Positions 24,117-33,615 of a stretch of 64,000 bases of DNA are shown piece by piece; positions within the stretch are counted from its first letter, which is position 1; each line of letters opens with the position of its first letter. A model generated the notes under the pieces. That model made no database searches and was not told the origin of the DNA. It saw nothing but the letters and a program-made list of their open reading frames with translations. The stretch covers positions 62,001 through 126,000 of the forward strand of contig QFXE01000020.1 in assembly GCA_003349915.1 (NCBI GenBank), in the 5' to 3' direction. This DNA is from an endosymbiont of Escarpia spicata (GTDB lineage Bacteria; Pseudomonadota; Gammaproteobacteria; Chromatiales; Chromatiaceae). A program made the translations under genes and the position numbers.

Positions 24117-24989
24117 TTACTGCGCTTTGAAGTCGATAGAATCAATAAGGTCGAGTATTTCCGTTCCTTCATTAAGATGCATAATCACATCCAGCTGTTG
24201 ATTTTTTTTGCGGAAAAATGACACGTAATTCACCCCATCCACAGTACGACCGATCTGCAATACGCCGCCTTCCTCTATTGAGTGAAATAGATTGGTCACC
24301 CCTTTTAAAATTAATTCATCCGGGAAATAACCTTTATTCAGCAGGTTCATACAGCGCAAATATGAACATTTCTCATCCATGGGTGCGGCAAAAATGTCAT
24401 AGTTTTGATGAAAAATCTCTTTATTGGCTATGCAGGAAAGAACCTTTGGATCGTATAAAAGTATGGTGCCCAACTCTTTCGATACGGGCCTTTTATTCAA
24501 AAGCTGAAATACCCATCGAGTGATAAAAAATTTACCACTGGATTCCTGGTCGGCGAAAATGGGGCCAACATATCCATTGAGGAATTTTTTTTCAGAGTCG
24601 TATATTTTTGTATAGAGAGGCGTTTTCTCGTAGAAAAATTTTGCGAATTTATCAGAAATATTAAAACTTGAACTGACACCCTGCTCCTGAAGCAGGCTAT
24701 AAAGTTCAAAAGAAGTAATGCCGCTCGACACTCCGACATCGTGAAAAACCGGTTTATCAAACTCCTTGAGCAGATCTACAGTATGTTGATCTATATCCTG
24801 AAACCTGTTTGCCCTACTCTCTTTAGAGGTTCTATTGTTCAGTTTAATTGATGTGTATATATGGTCCGCTACACTTCTGTCGCTATAGCTTGATAGTTTC
24901 AGAAGATTCCCCCGAACGAGCGCTCTGCCTATTCTGTTTGAGAACGCAAGTTGAAGGAGTGCCTGGTTTGATAAAACAATTTTAAACAT
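24117..24989 (-). CDS. AT-rich orphan gene, possible SAM-dependent methyltransferase
   Basis: A 290-residue protein not assigned to a family. The segment FHDVGVSSGITSFELYSLLQ looks like motif I of a Rossmann-type methyltransferase (hydrophobic-D-x-G-x-S-x-G), and the C-terminal half has LHSIEEGGVLQIGRTVDGVNYVSFF, which could be the late strands of that fold. The N-terminal 60 residues are basic. The codon usage is much more AT-rich than in its neighbours, and the gene is bordered on the 3' side by AGGGCCTGTT, the end sequence of a palindrome also seen at 35062. Both points suggest horizontal acquisition. It is monocistronic. Confidence 0.6.
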   Translation of the reverse strand: MFKIVLSNQALLQLAFSNRIGRALVRGNLLKLSSYSDRSVADHIYTSIKLNNRTSKESRANRFQDIDQHTVDLLKEFDKPVFHDVGVSSGITSFELYSLLQEQGVSSSFNISDKFAKFFYEKTPLYTKIYDSEKKFLNGYVGPIFADQESSGKFFITRWVFQLLNKRPVSKELGTILLYDPKVLSCIANKEIFHQNYDIFAAPMDEKCSYLRCMNLLNKGYFPDELILKGVTNLFHSIEEGGVLQIGRTVDGVNYVSFFRKKNQQLDVIMHLNEGTEILDLIDSIDFKAQ

Positions 24990-26146: not shown

Positions 26147-29100
26147 TCAGCTATCTTTCTTTTTCTTGAACAAACCACCCAGAGAATAGAGACGTTTTCC
26201 GGAGGTCTCTTGGCCATCGAGCGAGACAGGGCTTGCCTCCCCGACGCTGTCATCGAACTCCAATTCGGATGTATGCAGATTATCACTATTCAGCGGCTCC
26301 GACTCATCGGCTATCCGGGAATTTCTGCCAGTCTGCCTCAGCAACACCTCAAGCTTGCGTCCCAGACGATCCACCTCGCCGTCTCGATCTTCAATGGCGT
26401 CCTCCAGTGTGCGGCACTGTCTCTGTGACATGCGCAGTGTCTGCTCTTTCTCCCGTAACGCCTTCTTGATCGAATCGAGCTCCTGCCGTGTCGCTTGCAG
26501 GGCCGCAACCTCATTCATATCACGCCCTGAATGCTTACCCTGTGTCTCGGCCGCATCCAATGCCTGGCGCATCTGCTCCAGATCCTCAGACGCACGACTA
26601 CGCACCATGTTGAGTTCCGTACGCAACGCATCAACCTCGTCGTCAGCGCCAAGGGACTGCACTGTCTGGATCTGTTCCACATACTCTTCCATCACCGAGC
26701 GCAATTCATTTACCTCTTTTTTCAGACGCTTCGCCTGTCCTTCGGCTTGATCCCGTGCCTCTTCCACCAACTCCTTCTGCTGACGCATCTGCTCCATTTG
26801 ATCAAGTAGCGTGTCAGCCATCTCAGAGTCTTCGGCTACATTTTTGTTTTCCACCAGTTCCGAGTGCAACTGATCATTCTCACCCATCAAATCATCGAAT
26901 TGATCCCGCAGATCCGATAGCTGTTTGGATAGGGTGTCACGCTCTTCTTCAAGGGCAATCTTTTCATTGGTGAGTCCCTCAAAATCCTCTTCGAGCATCT
27001 CTACTGCCGTCTCCTGAACCTGCCGCTCCCGTTGCAGGAAATCGACCTGCTGCGCCTGCTGTTCCGCATCTCTGCGCCGCTTCTCCTCTTTCCCGAGAGC
27101 CGTGCGCAACTTTTGGATCTCGGATTCCACATCATCTTCAAACTCAGCCTCCATCTCCAGTTGCACTTCACGCAACCCGTCGACAGTCCGCTGTAGCTCT
27201 GTGATCCTTTTCTGTGCCTGAGCCAACGCCTCACTATCCCTGTCTTCACCGGCAGCCCTGGCTGCTGTCACCTGCTCAAGACCCTCTTTGGCCTCATCAA
27301 GCTGCTGCTGCAGCGCTGCGGTCAGCAGCTCGGCACTATTTTGCGTCTGAGTGAGTTGCTCCTTCTCTTCGTTCCATTCCAGCAGTGAAGATGCCAGTGT
27401 TTCTTCAGCTTGGGCCAACTCTTCCTTTTGTGAAGCCAGCTGTTGCTGGCTTTCCGTTTCAATCGCCGCAAGCCGTTCCTCAACCACGTTTTTCTCGGTT
27501 TGCAACTGCTCCAGTGCCCGCTGCCGCTCGCGCTCTTCAGCCGCCGACTCATCCCGTAAAGTCTGTAATTCGTCCTCAATCTCTCCAGACCGATGCTGCG
27601 TATCCTCTACCGTCCTTTGCAGGGCCGCAGTGGATTCCTGCTCCCGCTCCAACTGAGCCTGCAGCTCCGACTCCGACTTCTGCAGCTTGTCCCGCTCCTC
27701 GCGATAACGCGCCACAGTCTCATCTTCCGCCTCTCTGGTTGATGCCAGATCCTGCTCCAGGGTGGCGATGCGGGTTTCTGCAAGCTCCACTGCCTGCCGC
27801 AACTCAGAGCCAGCCCCCTGCTCATCTTCGATTATCTTCTGCAGGGCGGTCCGCTCTTCAGTCAATACATCGACCGAGGCGGCAGCCGATTCCAACTGCT
27901 GCTGGTGATCCTCTATTTCGTTGCGGGCGTTCTCCAGGGATTGCTGCAAGACATCCCGCTGTTCACTGTGTTGTTCGACAATTTCATCACCGGACGCCTT
28001 GGCCGCGGCAAGGTCCTGTTCCAATGAAGCGGCCCTTGCTTCCATCCGCTCCTGCGCTTCCCGAAGACCAACCACCGACTGCCGCTCAGCTTCAAGCGCT
28101 ACCTCAAGCTCACTCTGCCGGTCGGCCAATTCACCGGCGATCTGCTCTTTCGTCTCCAGCAGCTTCTGCTTGCTCTCTATCTCACCCCGCACTTCGTCAA
28201 GGGTGTGCTGTAGCGCATCACGCTCTTCACGATACTGTGCCGCAACTTCATCACCGCTCTCCCTCGCAGTGGCAAGACCCTCTTCCAAGGTGGTCGTTCT
28301 GCTTTCCAACTGTTGCTGGCTTGCCTGGAGATCGGCTGTAGTCTGCTGCTCTGCCTCCAGCAAGTCCTGCTTGTCATTCAGATCGCCCTGAACCTCATCC
28401 AGGTGCTTTTGTAGGCTATCCCGCTCTTCAAGGTAGCGGCTCGCAGTCTCATCCACAGACAGTTTCGCTGTGGCGAGATCCCCTTCAAGCGTTGCAGCCC
28501 GCGCCTCGCTGTTTTCCAGAGACTGGCGGATTTCCCCGGTTGTTCCCTGCTCTGTTTCCAGCGCACGTTCGAGCTCGAGCAGCCGGTCGCTCATGGCCTG
28601 ATCTGACTCGGCTTTCGATTCCAGCTGCTGCTGTTTGCCGCTTATCTCATGGCGGGCGTCGTCCAGTGCCTGCTGCAGAGCAGTAAGCTCTTCCTGCTGC
28701 CGGGCCGCCGTTTCATCCTCTGACGACTGAGCGGCAGACAGCTGCTGCTCAAGTCCGCTGGCACGGGCCTCCGACTGCTCCAGAGATTCGCGCAGCGCTG
28801 TTGCGACACCGCGCTCTTCCTTCAAGGATGCCTTAAACTGCGCCTTCTTCTCTATCAGACGCTGGCTTGTCTCACCTGCCTGTTCCAGCGCATGTTGTTT
28901 ATCAACGACATTGGCGCGAACCTGCTCCAGGGTCAGCAACAGATTATCCTGCTGTTCCTGATAAGATGCTGCCGCCTCTTCTCCTGCCAGCTTGGCGGCG
29001 GAAAGCGCTTCCTCCAGAGAGGTGGCTCTCGTCTCCAGTTCACTGAACGAATGGCGCAGGGTTTCAGCCTGTTCCTCAGAGACTGCCAGTGCATTTTCCA

Positions 29101-30877
29101 GTTCCGTCTGTTTTTCGAAAAGCTGCTGTCGTGCCGCTTCACCATTTAAATTTTCCTGATGCCGGCCGGCAGACTCCGCCTGCTTCTGTTCCAGCTCTTC
29201 TTTCAGGGCTGCCAAAATACCCTGGTTTTGTGCGTCGGCATCATCACCTGCCAAACGCACTGCGCGCAGTTCATTTTCCAGCGTTTCGGCCCGACCTTGC
29301 GCCGTTTCAAAAGATTCACGCAGTTCATCCGCAAGTTGTTTCTGCTGTGCGGCACTAGCCTCAAGTTCTGCTTTTTGCCCCTCAAGTGAAAGAGTGGTTT
29401 CTTCAGCATTCGATATGGCCTCAGCAACTTCTTGGTACTGACGCTGTTTGTCACCCGCTTCGGCCTGCGCCTGATCCAGCTCGGTACGCAAGGAGGCCAG
29501 CTCGGCCTGTTGACCGGCTTCAGATTCCGCTGCACTCTGCTGCAGATCCGTCAAGGTCTTCTGCAGTTCAGTTCGGCTCTCTTCGAGATCCTCCCGGGCG
29601 CATTTCAGCTCGGCAAGCTGTTCCTGCTCCGCAGTGAGACGAGCTTCCAGTTCAGACTGCTCCCCATCCAAGTCCTGCTGCCTCGTCTCGGCCTCCTGCA
29701 GGGAACGCTCCAGCTGCTCAATTTTTACTGTCTGCTGGGTTGCGGTCAGTGCCTGCTCTTCCAACAGGGCATCCCTGTCGGCAAGATCCATTTTCAGACT
29801 CTCCCTGGCCTCTTCCGTCTCCACCAGCAACAGCGCATGACGTTCGGCGGAACGTGCCGACTCATCCTTGACCAGCTGCAGCTCCCCGGTGAGTGATTGC
29901 AGGGCTGCCTGCCTGGCCTCATTCTGCTCAACACCAGCGTTTTTCAGGGCCTCCTGCTCACGCTGACTCTCAGACAGCCGGGACGCCAAGTCATCCCGCT
30001 CACTATCAAGGGCCTGTTTTTCTTTTTCCAGCTGCTGTTTCGCCGCCTCAGCAGCAGACACCTGCTGCGTCACTTCGGCAAGCTTCTCCTCTGCCTGATT
30101 CTGCCGCGCCAGATCGCCCGCACGTAGTTCATCCAACTCCTGCTGTAAAGTTTCCAGATGCCCGGAGAGTTCATCGCGCTCGCGGGTCAGTCTGGCCTGT
30201 TCGTCTGCCGACTGCTCCCGTAAACGATCAAGTCCCTGCTGCATGGATTGAAGTTGCCGCTCCAGCGTTGTCTGCTTGTCGACACTCTCTTCACCCCGGA
30301 CCTGAGCTGCAACCTTGGTCTCCTGCAGGACCTCTTTCGTTTCTGAAAGCTCTATCTGCAGCCCGGTCAGCTCCTCTTTCAACCGCCCTTGATCCAGGGC
30401 ATTCTGTTCATCCAAGCGGGTCATTTTTCCCCGCAGGGAGGCTATCTCTTCTGCTGCCGCAGCCTGGTCATGCTCTGCACTGACCGATTCCTCCTGCAGA
30501 CCACCGATCTCCTGTTCATGTGCCGTCCTGGTCTCCTGAATCTGCTGTTCCTGTTCATCCAACCGGCGGCGCGCAACCACCAACGCCTGTTTCAGCAGCT
30601 TGATTTCAGTCTGGCGACGACTAAGAATATCCTTATACTCCTGGCTCGCATCCTCCAACTGCTGCTGCATTTCGTCGGCACGTTGCTGCTCGGCATAAAA
30701 CTCTGCCATGTGGGAATCTTCATCAGGCTGGCCGTTTTCAGACCCATTCGCCTCGACAGCTTCCCGCTTGAAGTCGATGACGTTGTCGACTTTTTCCCCA
30801 GCAACGTGAATACCGGCAAGCGGAGCCACTACATCCCATGCCTGATCCAGCACGTAGACCTCAAAACCTCTCTCCAC
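26147..30877 (-). CDS. Giant coiled-coil protein with 88-residue repeats (3' part of a split gene)
   Basis: 1576 codons. The first 20 (RGFEVYVLDQAWDVVAP) complete the rhodanese-like domain of the upstream frame, showing that the two frames were one gene; a -1 shift at 30877 joins them into about 1903 residues. Residues 30-65 are a hydrophilic linker, about 66-1500 an almost unbroken coiled coil rich in Glu, Gln, Leu and Ala, and the C-terminus is polar, ending GGLFKKKKDS. Between about residues 439 and 1121 it consists of tandem repeats of 88 residues, starting for example EARAASLEQDLAAAK, with one shortened copy of 67. There is no signal peptide or transmembrane helix. The predicted molecule is a cytoplasmic rod, perhaps 200 nm long. 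No ribosome-binding site precedes the GTG at 30877. Function unknown; scaffold or cell-shape roles are guesses. Confidence 0.85.
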   Translation of the reverse strand: MERGFEVYVLDQAWDVVAPLAGIHVAGEKVDNVIDFKREAVEANGSENGQPDEDSHMAEFYAEQQRADEMQQQLEDASQEYKDILSRRQTEIKLLKQALVVARRRLDEQEQQIQETRTAHEQEIGGLQEESVSAEHDQAAAAEEIASLRGKMTRLDEQNALDQGRLKEELTGLQIELSETKEVLQETKVAAQVRGEESVDKQTTLERQLQSMQQGLDRLREQSADEQARLTRERDELSGHLETLQQELDELRAGDLARQNQAEEKLAEVTQQVSAAEAAKQQLEKEKQALDSERDDLASRLSESQREQEALKNAGVEQNEARQAALQSLTGELQLVKDESARSAERHALLLVETEEARESLKMDLADRDALLEEQALTATQQTVKIEQLERSLQEAETRQQDLDGEQSELEARLTAEQEQLAELKCAREDLEESRTELQKTLTDLQQSAAESEAGQQAELASLRTELDQAQAEAGDKQRQYQEVAEAISNAEETTLSLEGQKAELEASAAQQKQLADELRESFETAQGRAETLENELRAVRLAGDDADAQNQGILAALKEELEQKQAESAGRHQENLNGEAARQQLFEKQTELENALAVSEEQAETLRHSFSELETRATSLEEALSAAKLAGEEAAASYQEQQDNLLLTLEQVRANVVDKQHALEQAGETSQRLIEKKAQFKASLKEERGVATALRESLEQSEARASGLEQQLSAAQSSEDETAARQQEELTALQQALDDARHEISGKQQQLESKAESDQAMSDRLLELERALETEQGTTGEIRQSLENSEARAATLEGDLATAKLSVDETASRYLEERDSLQKHLDEVQGDLNDKQDLLEAEQQTTADLQASQQQLESRTTTLEEGLATARESGDEVAAQYREERDALQHTLDEVRGEIESKQKLLETKEQIAGELADRQSELEVALEAERQSVVGLREAQERMEARAASLEQDLAAAKASGDEIVEQHSEQRDVLQQSLENARNEIEDHQQQLESAAASVDVLTEERTALQKIIEDEQGAGSELRQAVELAETRIATLEQDLASTREAEDETVARYREERDKLQKSESELQAQLEREQESTAALQRTVEDTQHRSGEIEDELQTLRDESAAEERERQRALEQLQTEKNVVEERLAAIETESQQQLASQKEELAQAEETLASSLLEWNEEKEQLTQTQNSAELLTAALQQQLDEAKEGLEQVTAARAAGEDRDSEALAQAQKRITELQRTVDGLREVQLEMEAEFEDDVESEIQKLRTALGKEEKRRRDAEQQAQQVDFLQRERQVQETAVEMLEEDFEGLTNEKIALEEERDTLSKQLSDLRDQFDDLMGENDQLHSELVENKNVAEDSEMADTLLDQMEQMRQQKELVEEARDQAEGQAKRLKKEVNELRSVMEEYVEQIQTVQSLGADDEVDALRTELNMVRSRASEDLEQMRQALDAAETQGKHSGRDMNEVAALQATRQELDSIKKALREKEQTLRMSQRQCRTLEDAIEDRDGEVDRLGRKLEVLLRQTGRNSRIADESEPLNSDNLHTSELEFDDSVGEASPVSLDGQETSGKRLYSLGGLFKKKKDS

Positions 30878-31857
30878 AGATAAGCCGCGGTGGCAGCCTG
30901 TCCCACTTCGGCGCCATGGACGACATACTCTCTGTCATTAGCCAGACTGGAGGCCTGGAAGCGTAGCGAGAAGAAGGGCATGTTCAGACTTTCGGGCAGA
31001 TGCCCCGCCTCATACTCCTCCGGTGGACGTACATCCAACCAGAGCGCGCCGTCCTTGACTCTGGCTTTAGCCTTTTTATATTTTAGTGTTCTGGAGAGGG
31101 GGCTTTTTACCAGATCAACGAAGTCCGCCTTGCTGAGTCGTACCAGCACACCATCGGTAACCATGGTAACAGTGCTGCTACGCGGGGAGTCGGAGATGAG
31201 CGCCTCTTCGCCAAAACTGTCACCGGCACGAAGTTGCGCCAATTCCACGGGTGGCCTGTCCTGCTCGGGCTGGCGCGCCACACTGCAACGACCACTGCTG
31301 ATCAGATAGTAGTAATCCCCCTCTTCCCCCTGCCGAATAATGACATCGCCGGTGGTGACTGAAATCTCTTCCATGCGCATCATGACGCGCTGAAGATTGG
31401 CGGGAGGTATCTGTTGAAAAATGGAGGATTGCAGCAGCAGGGTCATCCAGTCCCCACTACTCTGCTCCTTGATATCATTGACTTCGTAACTTGCCTTCTG
31501 ACTCCGCGCCAACATGTCGCTTAGCATTCGGCTGTCGATGCGAACGAAGGTGGTCACACTCTTCGCCCTGGCAGAATGCTTGCGTGGGAGCTGATGAGCC
31601 AAGGCAAAACGAGCCGTCTGGGTACCACTGGCGACAGAATCAACCTCCCGTTTGCCGGACAGCAGTCCAACGTTGCCGGATAGCAGGTAGACATTCTGAT
31701 GATCCGTATCACCCTCGTGAAAGAGATACTCCCCTTTCACCGCCTTCTCGACCACAATCCGGCTCAGCAGCTGGCCGAGTTGCTCGTCCGACAAGGTATT
31801 CAGAGGGACCAGATTTTTCAGCAGGGCATCATCTTTTTGTGTTTTCGCCACCGCCAT
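30829..31857 (-). CDS. Double cyclic-nucleotide-binding and rhodanese-like protein (5' part of a split gene)
   Basis: 342 codons. Residues about 20-125 and 140-255 are two cNMP-binding domains: VKGEYLFHEGDTDHQNVYLL, and the better preserved EISVTTGDVIIRQGEEGDYY then AGDSFGEEALISDSPRSS, where FGEEAL and the following Arg are the phosphate-binding cassette. Residues 268-327 are a rhodanese fold (LWLDVRPPEEYEAGHLPESL). Its active-site loop reads EYVVHGAEVGQAATAAYL where VVYCxxGxRSxxAA is expected, so the catalytic Cys is replaced and sulfur transfer is unlikely. After residue 327 the frame leaves the family sequence and stops 15 codons later; the next domain continues in the giant coiled-coil frame. 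The start ATG 31857 (MAVAKTQKDDAL) is well placed. Confidence 0.85.
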   Translation of the reverse strand: MAVAKTQKDDALLKNLVPLNTLSDEQLGQLLSRIVVEKAVKGEYLFHEGDTDHQNVYLLSGNVGLLSGKREVDSVASGTQTARFALAHQLPRKHSARAKSVTTFVRIDSRMLSDMLARSQKASYEVNDIKEQSSGDWMTLLLQSSIFQQIPPANLQRVMMRMEEISVTTGDVIIRQGEEGDYYYLISSGRCSVARQPEQDRPPVELAQLRAGDSFGEEALISDSPRSSTVTMVTDGVLVRLSKADFVDLVKSPLSRTLKYKKAKARVKDGALWLDVRPPEEYEAGHLPESLNMPFFSLRFQASSLANDREYVVHGAEVGQAATAAYLWREVLRSTCWIRHGM

Positions 31858-32058: not shown

Positions 32059-33615
32059 GTGCGAAAAAAAAAGACAACGGGAGGCGTAGTTGCCGCAGGA
32101 CACCAGGAGACTGCCAACGCAGCCCTACAGATCCTGCAGGAGGGGGGCAACGCATTTGATGCCGCCATTGCGGCCATGTTTACCGCCTGTGTGGCGGAAC
32201 CAGCGCTTGCGTCGCTCGGTGGCGGCGGTTTCCTTACCGCCCGCCCGGTGAATGCCGACCCGTTGGTCTACGATTTTTTCGCCCACACACCTTCTCGAAA
32301 GCAGCCTGAAGCCGCCACCAATCTTCATCCCATTGTGGCTGATTTCGGAAACGCCAGCCAGACGTTTCATATCGGCATGGGTTCCATCGCCACACCCGGA
32401 TTCATCAAAGGGGTGTTTGCGATACATCGGGAACGCTGCAGCATGCCGCTCAAACTGCTGGCAATGCCGGCCATAAATGCAGCAATCAGAGGCGTCAGGG
32501 TCAATCCGTTCCAGCATCTGATCTCCGGAATCGTGCAGCCGATTCTCCGATCCAGCAATGCCGCATTTCAGTTACACAGTTCAACCATCAATTCCGACCA
32601 GCTTGCGCAGGTGGGTGAGACGCGGAAACAACCGGAGATGGCAGCTTTTTTCGAACATCTTTGCCGGGAAGGGGAAGCACTTTTCTATCTTGGAGAGGCG
32701 GGTCAACAACTGACTGATACCTGCCGGGAGTCAGGAGGTCACTTACGCCCGCACGACTTAAAACAGTATCAGGCTGTAAAACGTAAACCACTTGAACGAC
32801 GCTACCGGCAGGCGCGCATCTTTACCAATCCAACACCGGCTCTTGGCGGCACACTGATCGCTTTCACTCTCGCATTATTGGAATCATACTCCCTGGACAA
32901 TCATTTGCCGGGCGACGCAGATCACCTGAGAAGAGTGATCCGGGCTATCTGCCTGACACAGCATCTGCGCACAACACAAAGCAGGAAGATAGAAAAACTG
33001 CTGAATGAAGATGTTCTACGTGAGTACCGGCAACGACTTCATAAAGGCGGCATCTGCACTCGGGGCACGACCCAAATCAGCATTTTGGACCGACAGGACA
33101 ATCTGGCAAGCATGACCCTATCCAATGGCGAGGGGTCGGGTTATGTCATTCCCGGCACCGGCATCATGATGAACAACATGTTAGGGGAAGAGGACATCAA
33201 TCCCTGTGGATTTCACAACTGGCCTGAAGATGAACGCATCGCTTCCATGATGTCCCCGACGCTGGCATTCCTTGATCAAGGAAGAATCGTTGTTACGGGG
33301 TCCGGTGGCTCAAACCGGATTCGCAGTGCAATCCTCCAAGTGCTATCCAATCTGATCGATTTCGACATGCCACTGCAACAGGCCGTCGCTTTCCCGCGCA
33401 TCCATTTTGAAGAAGGACTGCTCAGCATGGAGCCTGGGGTAGACCAGAGTATCTCCAGCCGTCTTGCCACGGAATTCCCGCGGCAGCGGCAATGGGATAG
33501 TAAAAACCTCTTCTTTGGCGGCGCCCATACGGTAATGCTGGAGGCAGATGGCGGACTCATCGGCGCAGGAGATGAACGGCGCGGCGGCGTCTGGCTCTCT
33601 ACCGAAACAGTTTAA
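32059..33615 (+). CDS. Gamma-glutamyltransferase-family protein
   Basis: An Ntn-hydrolase precursor of 518 residues, starting at GTG 32059. It has GGVVAAGHQETANAALQIL and GGNAFDAAIAAM near the N-terminus, GSIATPGFIKGVFAIH, PTPALGGTLIAFTL, and the processing site GTTQISILDRQDNLASMTLS, where the second Thr should become the N-terminal nucleophile of the small subunit. Known enzymes have TTHxS; His is Gln here. SGGSNRIRSAILQVL and AVAFPRIHFEEG complete the small subunit. There is no signal peptide, so unlike E. coli Ggt it should be cytoplasmic. Substrate may be glutathione or another gamma-glutamyl compound, or a cephalosporin-acylase-like substrate. Monocistronic. Confidence 0.88.
   Translation: MRKKKTTGGVVAAGHQETANAALQILQEGGNAFDAAIAAMFTACVAEPALASLGGGGFLTARPVNADPLVYDFFAHTPSRKQPEAATNLHPIVADFGNASQTFHIGMGSIATPGFIKGVFAIHRERCSMPLKLLAMPAINAAIRGVRVNPFQHLISGIVQPILRSSNAAFQLHSSTINSDQLAQVGETRKQPEMAAFFEHLCREGEALFYLGEAGQQLTDTCRESGGHLRPHDLKQYQAVKRKPLERRYRQARIFTNPTPALGGTLIAFTLALLESYSLDNHLPGDADHLRRVIRAICLTQHLRTTQSRKIEKLLNEDVLREYRQRLHKGGICTRGTTQISILDRQDNLASMTLSNGEGSGYVIPGTGIMMNNMLGEEDINPCGFHNWPEDERIASMMSPTLAFLDQGRIVVTGSGGSNRIRSAILQVLSNLIDFDMPLQQAVAFPRIHFEEGLLSMEPGVDQSISSRLATEFPRQRQWDSKNLFFGGAHTVMLEADGGLIGAGDERRGGVWLSTETV

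What the first reader, a model, noticed from the sequence alone, without database searches (positions are those of the whole stretch)
26147..31857. Two cyclic-nucleotide domains, a rhodanese-like domain and a giant coiled coil form one split gene
The 342-codon frame at 30829-31857 loses its rhodanese domain at ATAAYLW, while the frame at 26147-30877 starts with the missing end of that same domain (ERGFEVYVLDQAWD). A -1 shift at 30877, between TAT CTG and GTG GAG, restores AAYLVERGFEVYVL and gives a single protein of about 1903 residues: cNMP-cNMP-rhodanese-rod. I know of no described protein with this order. A cyclic-nucleotide or sulfur-transfer-like sensor on the end of a very long rod could be a regulated cytoskeletal or polar scaffold. 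The break itself may be an error, decay, or recoding; the context CTG TGG is not a classic slippery site.
Basis: partly seen in the sequence, partly recalled or inferred. Interest (0 to 1): 0.75.

Follow-up and report, generated by a model that had tools for sequence, protein, structure and literature searches.

The report
Frame-broken giant cAMP-receptor rod gene
In a bacterium closely related to tubeworm symbionts, one very long gene for a cyclic-nucleotide-sensing head on a giant coiled-coil rod reads as two pieces because four bases are missing; its relatives carry the gene whole, and it belongs to a widespread protein family for which our limited paper searches found no description.

Summary
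All five other genomes of the genus carry the gene: three as one open frame of 1904-1905 aa, a fourth open to near its contig end, the fifth in frame at the junction but broken further on. The window lacks four bases at about 30877, so this is neither a -1 slip nor recoding. The product is a degenerate cNMP domain, a cNMP domain with an intact phosphate-binding cassette, a rhodanese fold without its cysteine, a ~1460-residue coiled-coil rod and a basic tail. The order is not unique: heads of this family occur in 170 of 369 genomes sampled from the class, but in only 14 of 200 sampled from the phylum, in short (~350 aa) and long forms. Thirty of 65 closed long proteins carry a SUMF1-like domain; in the 29 that have it in frame it follows one predicted transmembrane helix and holds four invariant cysteines. 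A few short forms sit beside a CHASE2 cyclase or a cAMP-phosphodiesterase-like gene. The symbiont lineage lacks helix, SUMF1-like domain and rhodanese cysteine. Best reading: a cAMP-responsive head on a membrane-attached rod, broken here by mutation or assembly error. Ligand and membrane attachment are inferred.

The parts
26147..31857 (-). whole gene (one open frame in intact relatives; two frames here)
31504..31743 (-). first cNMP-binding domain, degenerate (no FGE..R cassette)
   Evidence: PF00027 at G000:C4:93504-93743, E 5.9e-8; no cassette in the alignment
31105..31362 (-). second cNMP-binding domain with intact phosphate-binding cassette (FGEEAL...R)
   Evidence: PF00027 at G000:C4:93105-93362, E 2.9e-19; cassette Glu in 112 of 113 and Arg in 113 of 113 family heads, window included; the name of the cassette is recalled
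30830..31077 (-). rhodanese domain, interrupted at about 30877; catalytic Cys position is Gly
   Evidence: PF00581 over residues 261-330 of the 342-aa frame; loop alignment; rhodanese matches of the intact relative L033
30874..30880 (-). site where four bases present in relatives are absent
26330..30709 (-). coiled-coil rod, about 1460 residues (bounds judged by eye); weak 88-residue internal repeat
   Evidence: 59 of 72 overlapping 84-residue windows beat at least 95 of 100 shuffles for heptad-range periodicity; autocorrelation peaks at lags 88, 243 and 176
26537..26707 (-). distal rod element (ELRSVMEEYVEQI...) also found in L074, L054 and L082
   Evidence: one pattern found in 4 of 8 proteins tested (L073, L074, L054, L082)
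26150..26191 (-). basic C-terminal tail (SLGGLFKKKKDS)
   Evidence: window frame; a like tail in 18 of 18 closed copies that I chose to print; absent at the end of L052
25200..26072 (-). PfkB-family kinase gene, 74 bases downstream, same strand
   Evidence: PF00294; spacing; PfkB within three genes in 28 of 71 long-form genes
32059..33615 (+). gamma-glutamyltranspeptidase-family gene, divergent neighbour that marks the orthologous position
   Evidence: PF01019; within three genes in 20 of 71 long-form genes, including FGE-bearing L074, L075 and L077

Best explanation
The two frames are one gene of the 'tandem-cNMP-rhodanese-rod' family. Shown: relatives of the same genus carry it in frame, and four bases are missing here. 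Shown by comparison: the head is a PKA-regulatory-subunit-like pair of cNMP domains, only the second with a binding cassette, followed by a rhodanese fold whose cysteine is absent in this lineage. A ~1460-residue coiled-coil rod (about 0.2 micrometre if fully extended, from a recalled rise per residue) ends in a basic tail shared by the lineage. Inferred: the second domain binds cAMP; binding changes the head; the head is held at a distance from the inner membrane by the rod, whose tail attaches to the membrane in place of the transmembrane helix and SUMF1-like domain that many long relatives have. The protein would thus be a cAMP-responsive tether or scaffold derived from a transmembrane signalling protein. 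In this genome the copy is interrupted, by a strain-level mutation or by an assembly error. My confidence is about 0.9 for one gene, family and architecture, and about 0.35 for the mechanism.
For: Single frames in relatives: 1904 aa (L073) and 1905 aa (L033, L035), with L032 open to near the contig end. The rod is present in 6 of 6 genomes of the genus, in two pieces with stops in one, G001. Selection: dN/dS 0.03-0.10 in the head and 0.17-0.26 in the rod in the pairs computed, window included. Head fold: the best Foldseek match of the predicted structure is a PKA regulatory subunit (2qcs_B, E 9.9e-22), though pTM is only 0.36; cGMP- and cAMP-dependent kinases are among the best PDB sequence matches. 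Cassette Glu 112 of 113, Arg 113 of 113. Ancestry: a divergent GGT neighbour also in L074, L075 and L077, whose proteins carry one predicted helix and a SUMF1-like end: PF03781 by Pfam in L074 and L077, L075 as a row of the FGE profile. cAMP link: within three genes of 33 short-form genes, 5 have a CHASE2-cyclase-like gene and 5 a class-II-phosphodiesterase-like gene. In each 5, two are the paired short forms of one locus, L066. Pfam confirmed the cyclase in L063, L066 and L092 and the phosphodiesterase in L061; the rest are BLAST matches. The window's genome has a class III and a class I cyclase. Tail: 82% mean pairwise identity in the last 12 residues against 54% in the preceding 63, over 15 chosen copies.
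Against: No ligand, localisation or expression data. The cyclase and phosphodiesterase neighbours belong to few short forms; the long forms' neighbours (PfkB, Rieske-like, GGT) give no cAMP link. The phosphodiesterase-like protein scores highest in NCBIfam against RNase Z, below the cut-off. Membrane binding by the tail is inferred from composition alone, and L052 ends without the tail. Copies L034, L038 and L065 are broken too, at other places, so the gene may be dispensable in some symbionts, or drafts may assemble it badly. The joint lack of the rhodanese cysteine and the FGE domain is not significant on the tree: 3 independent pairs on starred branches, sign test median p 1. In a draw from the phylum only 14 of 200 genomes had the head, and the longest open frame listed there was 628 aa.
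Confidence: 0.6

Rival explanations
1. The four-base gap is a sequencing or assembly error and the organism carries an intact gene.
For: None of the five other genus genomes has this gap; the window pieces show no extra decay, with low dN/dS in both; other assemblies of relatives also break this gene, each elsewhere.
Against: A four-base gap is not a homopolymer-type error; no other printed frame-changing gap lies deep inside a shared long frame of the window region against G005.
Confidence: 0.45
2. The gap is a real, recent strain-level mutation (pseudogene or truncated head plus lost rod).
For: Same data; the length and sequence context fit a small slippage deletion (inference); other symbiont copies are interrupted at independent places (window, L034, L038, L065: 4 of the 25 symbiont-clade copies that I count over).
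Against: No other frame damage in the 5.7 kb; purifying selection among close relatives.
Confidence: 0.45
3. Programmed frameshifting joins the two frames.
Against: Relatives need no shift here: the frame is continuous. The breaks in other assemblies lie at other codons.
Confidence: 0.02
4. It is a cytoskeletal or polar scaffold, and cyclic nucleotide binding is secondary.
For: A very long rod with an 88-residue period and length that varies from 1349 to 1905 aa among closed symbiont copies.
Against: The head is conserved far better than the rod; 29 long relatives with an in-frame SUMF1-like domain are predicted membrane-spanning. No test of localisation was possible.
Confidence: 0.25

Closest known systems
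Regulatory subunits of cAMP-dependent protein kinase (tandem CNB domains)
   Same: two tandem cNMP domains; best Foldseek match, and among the best sequence matches, in PDB
   Different: first domain without cassette; no kinase partner looked for; fused to rhodanese and rod
CRP/FNR-type bacterial cNMP receptors
   Same: PF00027 domain
   Different: no DNA-binding domain reported by Pfam in the four heads scanned
Single-domain rhodaneses (GlpE/PspE type)
   Same: PF00581 fold; sequence matches to rhodanese chains
   Different: catalytic cysteine position is Gly in the symbiont lineage
SUMF1/FGE-like domain proteins (PvdO, GldK families)
   Same: C-terminal PF03781-type domain in 30 of 65 closed long relatives
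   Different: absent from the window gene; L074 scores far below the NCBIfam cut-offs of the named families

Membership tests
cNMP-binding domain proteins (PF00027) | domain above curated cut-off | tested here: met
   99.6 bits against a cut-off of 27.5
cNMP-binding domain proteins (PF00027) | phosphate-binding cassette Glu and Arg | tested here: met
   second domain only; Glu 112 and Arg 113 of 113 heads
cNMP-binding domain proteins (PF00027) | binds cAMP or cGMP | not testable with these tools
   needs a binding assay
Active rhodanese (thiosulfate sulfurtransferase) | rhodanese fold | tested here: met
   40.3 bits against a cut-off of 22.2, on the interrupted piece
Active rhodanese (thiosulfate sulfurtransferase) | catalytic cysteine in the active loop | tested here: not met
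   Gly in the window and in 16 of 16 other symbiont-clade rows; the further symbiont rows also show Gly
PKA regulatory subunit | tandem CNB fold | tested here: met
   best match by E-value 2qcs_B, TM-score 0.37 by target length; low global confidence of the model (pTM 0.36)
PKA regulatory subunit | inhibitor sequence and docking domain that act on a kinase | not tested
   no kinase partner was searched for
Long cNMP-rhodanese-rod-TM-SUMF1 form | head homology, orthologous position | tested here: met
   tree and synteny
Long cNMP-rhodanese-rod-TM-SUMF1 form | transmembrane helix and PF03781 domain | tested here: not met
   no helix over threshold in the window rod; no PF03781 in it; the next gene starts 74 bases on and is PfkB
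Programmed frameshift gene | the out-of-frame junction is conserved | tested here: not met

The most novel reading that the evidence does not exclude
A widespread gammaproteobacterial class of PKA-regulatory-like cAMP receptors exists, for which my searches found no description, in a soluble form that in some lineages is tied to a CHASE2 cyclase and phosphodiesterase, and a transmembrane form that links a cytosolic cAMP head through a rod of hundreds to over a thousand residues to a disulfide-stabilised periplasmic SUMF1-like domain. In tubeworm and lucinid symbionts the outer domain and the rhodanese activity were discarded and the protein became a cAMP-controlled membrane tether.
Probability: 0.3. 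Interest if true: 0.7.

Novelty: new variant of a known kind. Interest (0 to 1): 0.5.

Why it matters
If right, cAMP in many gammaproteobacteria acts through a receptor other than CRP: one that spans the membrane on a very long rod, or, in some lineages, stands beside its own cyclase and phosphodiesterase. The symbiont branch offers a natural experiment: same head and rod, but no outer domain and no rhodanese cysteine. For the window itself it corrects the annotation: one gene, not two.

Tried and rejected
Recoding: rejected, since relatives are continuous in frame. Two separate genes: rejected on the same data. Broad assembly decay of the region: not supported, since the gap stands alone in the comparison with G005; the comparison with the more distant G001 is noisier (69 gaps in 55,373 columns, with many more frame-changing rows). 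DNA-level tandem repeats in the gene: none reported at the default score.

Coupled loss of rhodanese cysteine and FGE domain: raw counts look strong (29 of 30 FGE proteins with Cys; 18 of 35 closed long proteins without FGE with Cys) but are not significant on the tree. The one FGE exception, L166, has a Cys one position earlier. L162's FGE part lies in the next frame and was counted as FGE. L177 lacks helix and FGE but is not among the rows without Cys. A first Cys count by pattern missed rows and was replaced by the alignment-based one. Rows left out of the 54-row tree: L034, L038, L065, L084. Left out of the 113-row tree: L034, L037, L038, L043, L044, L051, L053, L055, L065. Both trees are quick ones without bootstrap.

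Literature: nine searches were answered. Seven paired cyclic-nucleotide wording with rhodanese or FGE: four gave no paper, one, one, two. One search asked for Endoriftia with coiled-coil (one paper) and for cAMP in Riftia symbionts (two papers). I saw passages of three of these: in PMC12604733 the two terms are separate genes of a table, in PMC12419801 an abbreviation list and a reference, in PMC8789280 a reference title. The other four I saw as listings only. A survey of the rhodanese superfamily (Burroughs and Aravind 2023, PMC10034599), seen only as a reference, may hold this architecture; it is not in the library. So absence from print is weakly tested.
Full report
What is there. On the - strand a 342-aa frame (30829-31857) and a 1576-aa frame (26147-30877) overlap by 49 bases. 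Pfam gives two cNMP-binding stretches and a rhodanese domain in the first, and nothing above a curated cut-off in the second. The second reads as a coiled coil: 59 of 72 overlapping 84-residue windows show heptad-range periodicity stronger than at least 95 of 100 shuffles, with proline 0.3% and a weak 88-residue repeat. No DNA-level tandem repeat was reported.

Where it comes from. Named relatives at 95-98% identity in the head are endosymbionts of the tubeworms Lamellibrachia and Escarpia; the next group, at 70-76%, is almost wholly 'Candidatus Thiodiazotropha' and other bivalve symbionts, with one record titled only Chromatiales (that these bivalves are lucinids is recalled).

One gene. In L033, L035 and L073 the gene is one frame of 1904-1905 aa; L032 is open to near its contig end; L034 is in frame at the junction but broken further on by about 1.1 kb of extra sequence that resembles the rod (79-89% identity over the matched parts). 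None of the five has the window's four-base gap, nor do L036 and L045. So this is neither a -1 slip nor conserved recoding. Against G005 the gap stands alone as a frame break deep inside a shared long frame (41 gaps in 55,975 columns). Two other symbiont copies, L038 and L065, are split at other codons. By my count over, 4 of 25 symbiont-clade copies (window included) are interrupted, at four different places. Of the other three, two are metagenome-assembled records and one is a Hi-C scaffold. I cannot tell error from mutation.

Selection. In the pairs computed dN/dS is 0.03-0.10 for the head and 0.17-0.26 for the rod. Both halves are constrained, the head much more.

The family. A profile of 21 heads finds matches at E up to 1e-30 in 170 of 369 genomes drawn from the class, but only in 14 of 200 drawn from the phylum, 9 of them in the class; prevalence depends on the draw. 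In the capped list open frames fall into two broad sizes, mostly about 350-480 aa and about 500-2000 aa. I took 20 short and 40 long places from that list for study, so proportions among them are not a sample. The second cNMP domain keeps its cassette throughout (Glu 112 of 113, Arg 113 of 113). The predicted head (mean pLDDT 73.5, pTM 0.36) has a PKA regulatory subunit as best match; the 50 matches listed are nearly all PKA and PKG tandem cNMP structures.

The SUMF1-bearing long form. Of the 65 closed long proteins placed on the tree, 30 carry a SUMF1-like (PF03781-type) domain, one of them in the adjacent frame. Pfam confirmed the domain in the three that I scanned (L074, L077, L081); the others rest on a profile built from four of these proteins. 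All 29 with the domain in frame have one predicted transmembrane helix and four invariant cysteines in the domain, while about 24,000 rod residues of the same proteins hold 17 cysteines. This fits a cytosolic head and rod and a periplasmic end domain, but topology was not tested. The 35 closed long proteins without it include 14 symbiont copies, a set of roughly 700-1300 aa proteins, and L054, L179 and L181, which keep a predicted helix.

The symbiont variant. The symbiont gene has the same divergent GGT-family neighbour as L074, L075, L076 and L077, three of which (L074, L075, L077) carry the helix and SUMF1-like domain. It groups with FGE-bearing L074, L075 and L081 on the tree (97* for the 24-row set). 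It lacks helix, SUMF1-like domain and rhodanese cysteine; that these were lost rather than never gained is inferred from this nesting. It has a basic tail seen in 18 of 18 closed copies printed (L052 ends without it, and L032, L034, L038, L041 and L065 were not in that list, being cut or broken). Over 15 lucinid-type copies the last 12 residues are 82% identical on average against 54% in the preceding 63. L177, another lineage without helix, also ends in a basic stretch.

Neighbours. Within three genes, short forms (33) have AroE-like 14, AmtB-like 13, GlnK-like 10, class-II-phosphodiesterase-like 5 and CHASE2-cyclase-like 5; long forms (71) have PfkB 28, Rieske-like 23 and GGT 20 (BLAST matches to one marker each). 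AroE, AmtB, GlnK and Rieske are my reading of the sequences. These loci are not independent, and one contig counts twice (L060, L182). In L066 the order is CHASE2 cyclase, phosphodiesterase-like, two short forms, and a type II/IV secretion-type ATPase. The window's genome holds one class III and one class I adenylate cyclase and 14 cNMP-domain matches, 13 over the cut-off.

Mechanism. Shown: architecture, homology, intact cassette, missing cysteine, missing outer part. Inferred: cAMP as ligand (from a few short-form neighbours and the genome's cyclases), membrane attachment of the tail, and a tether or scaffold role. The Gly at the cysteine position makes sulfur transfer by the usual mechanism unlikely.

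Verdict. I found no functional data. Interest is moderate: the family deserves attention more than the break does.

Noticed in passing
window 24117-24989 (-): 290-aa frame without any Pfam match; among the loci clustered it has counterparts only in three other tubeworm-symbiont loci (cluster c26: L033, L035, L073, window).
   Followed up: no
L034 10001-15731: About 1.1 kb of extra sequence inside the rod, 79-89% like rod sequence over the matched parts; a partial duplication or a chimeric assembly.
   Followed up: partly
L038 about 2280 and L065 about 7770: These lucinid-symbiont copies are also split into two frames, at codons different from the window's.
   Followed up: partly
L066 6996-14502: CHASE2 adenylate cyclase, class-II-phosphodiesterase-like gene, two short cNMP-rhodanese genes and a GAF/MshEN type II/IV secretion ATPase in one direction, close together. 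The like cyclase of L063 is itself in two frames.
   Followed up: partly
L171, L175, L184, L185: Two family members of long or mid length lie close together, divergent or in tandem.
   Followed up: no
window 31105-31362: The second cNMP domain matches the family 2B encapsulin model (52.8 bits, E 3.3e-14), far below that model's cut-off of 400.
   Followed up: no
L056, L057, L058, L080, L085, L188, L189, L190, L193-L196, L201: Short forms near AmtB-like and AroE-like genes, often with a GlnK-like gene, suggesting a link to nitrogen status.
   Followed up: partly
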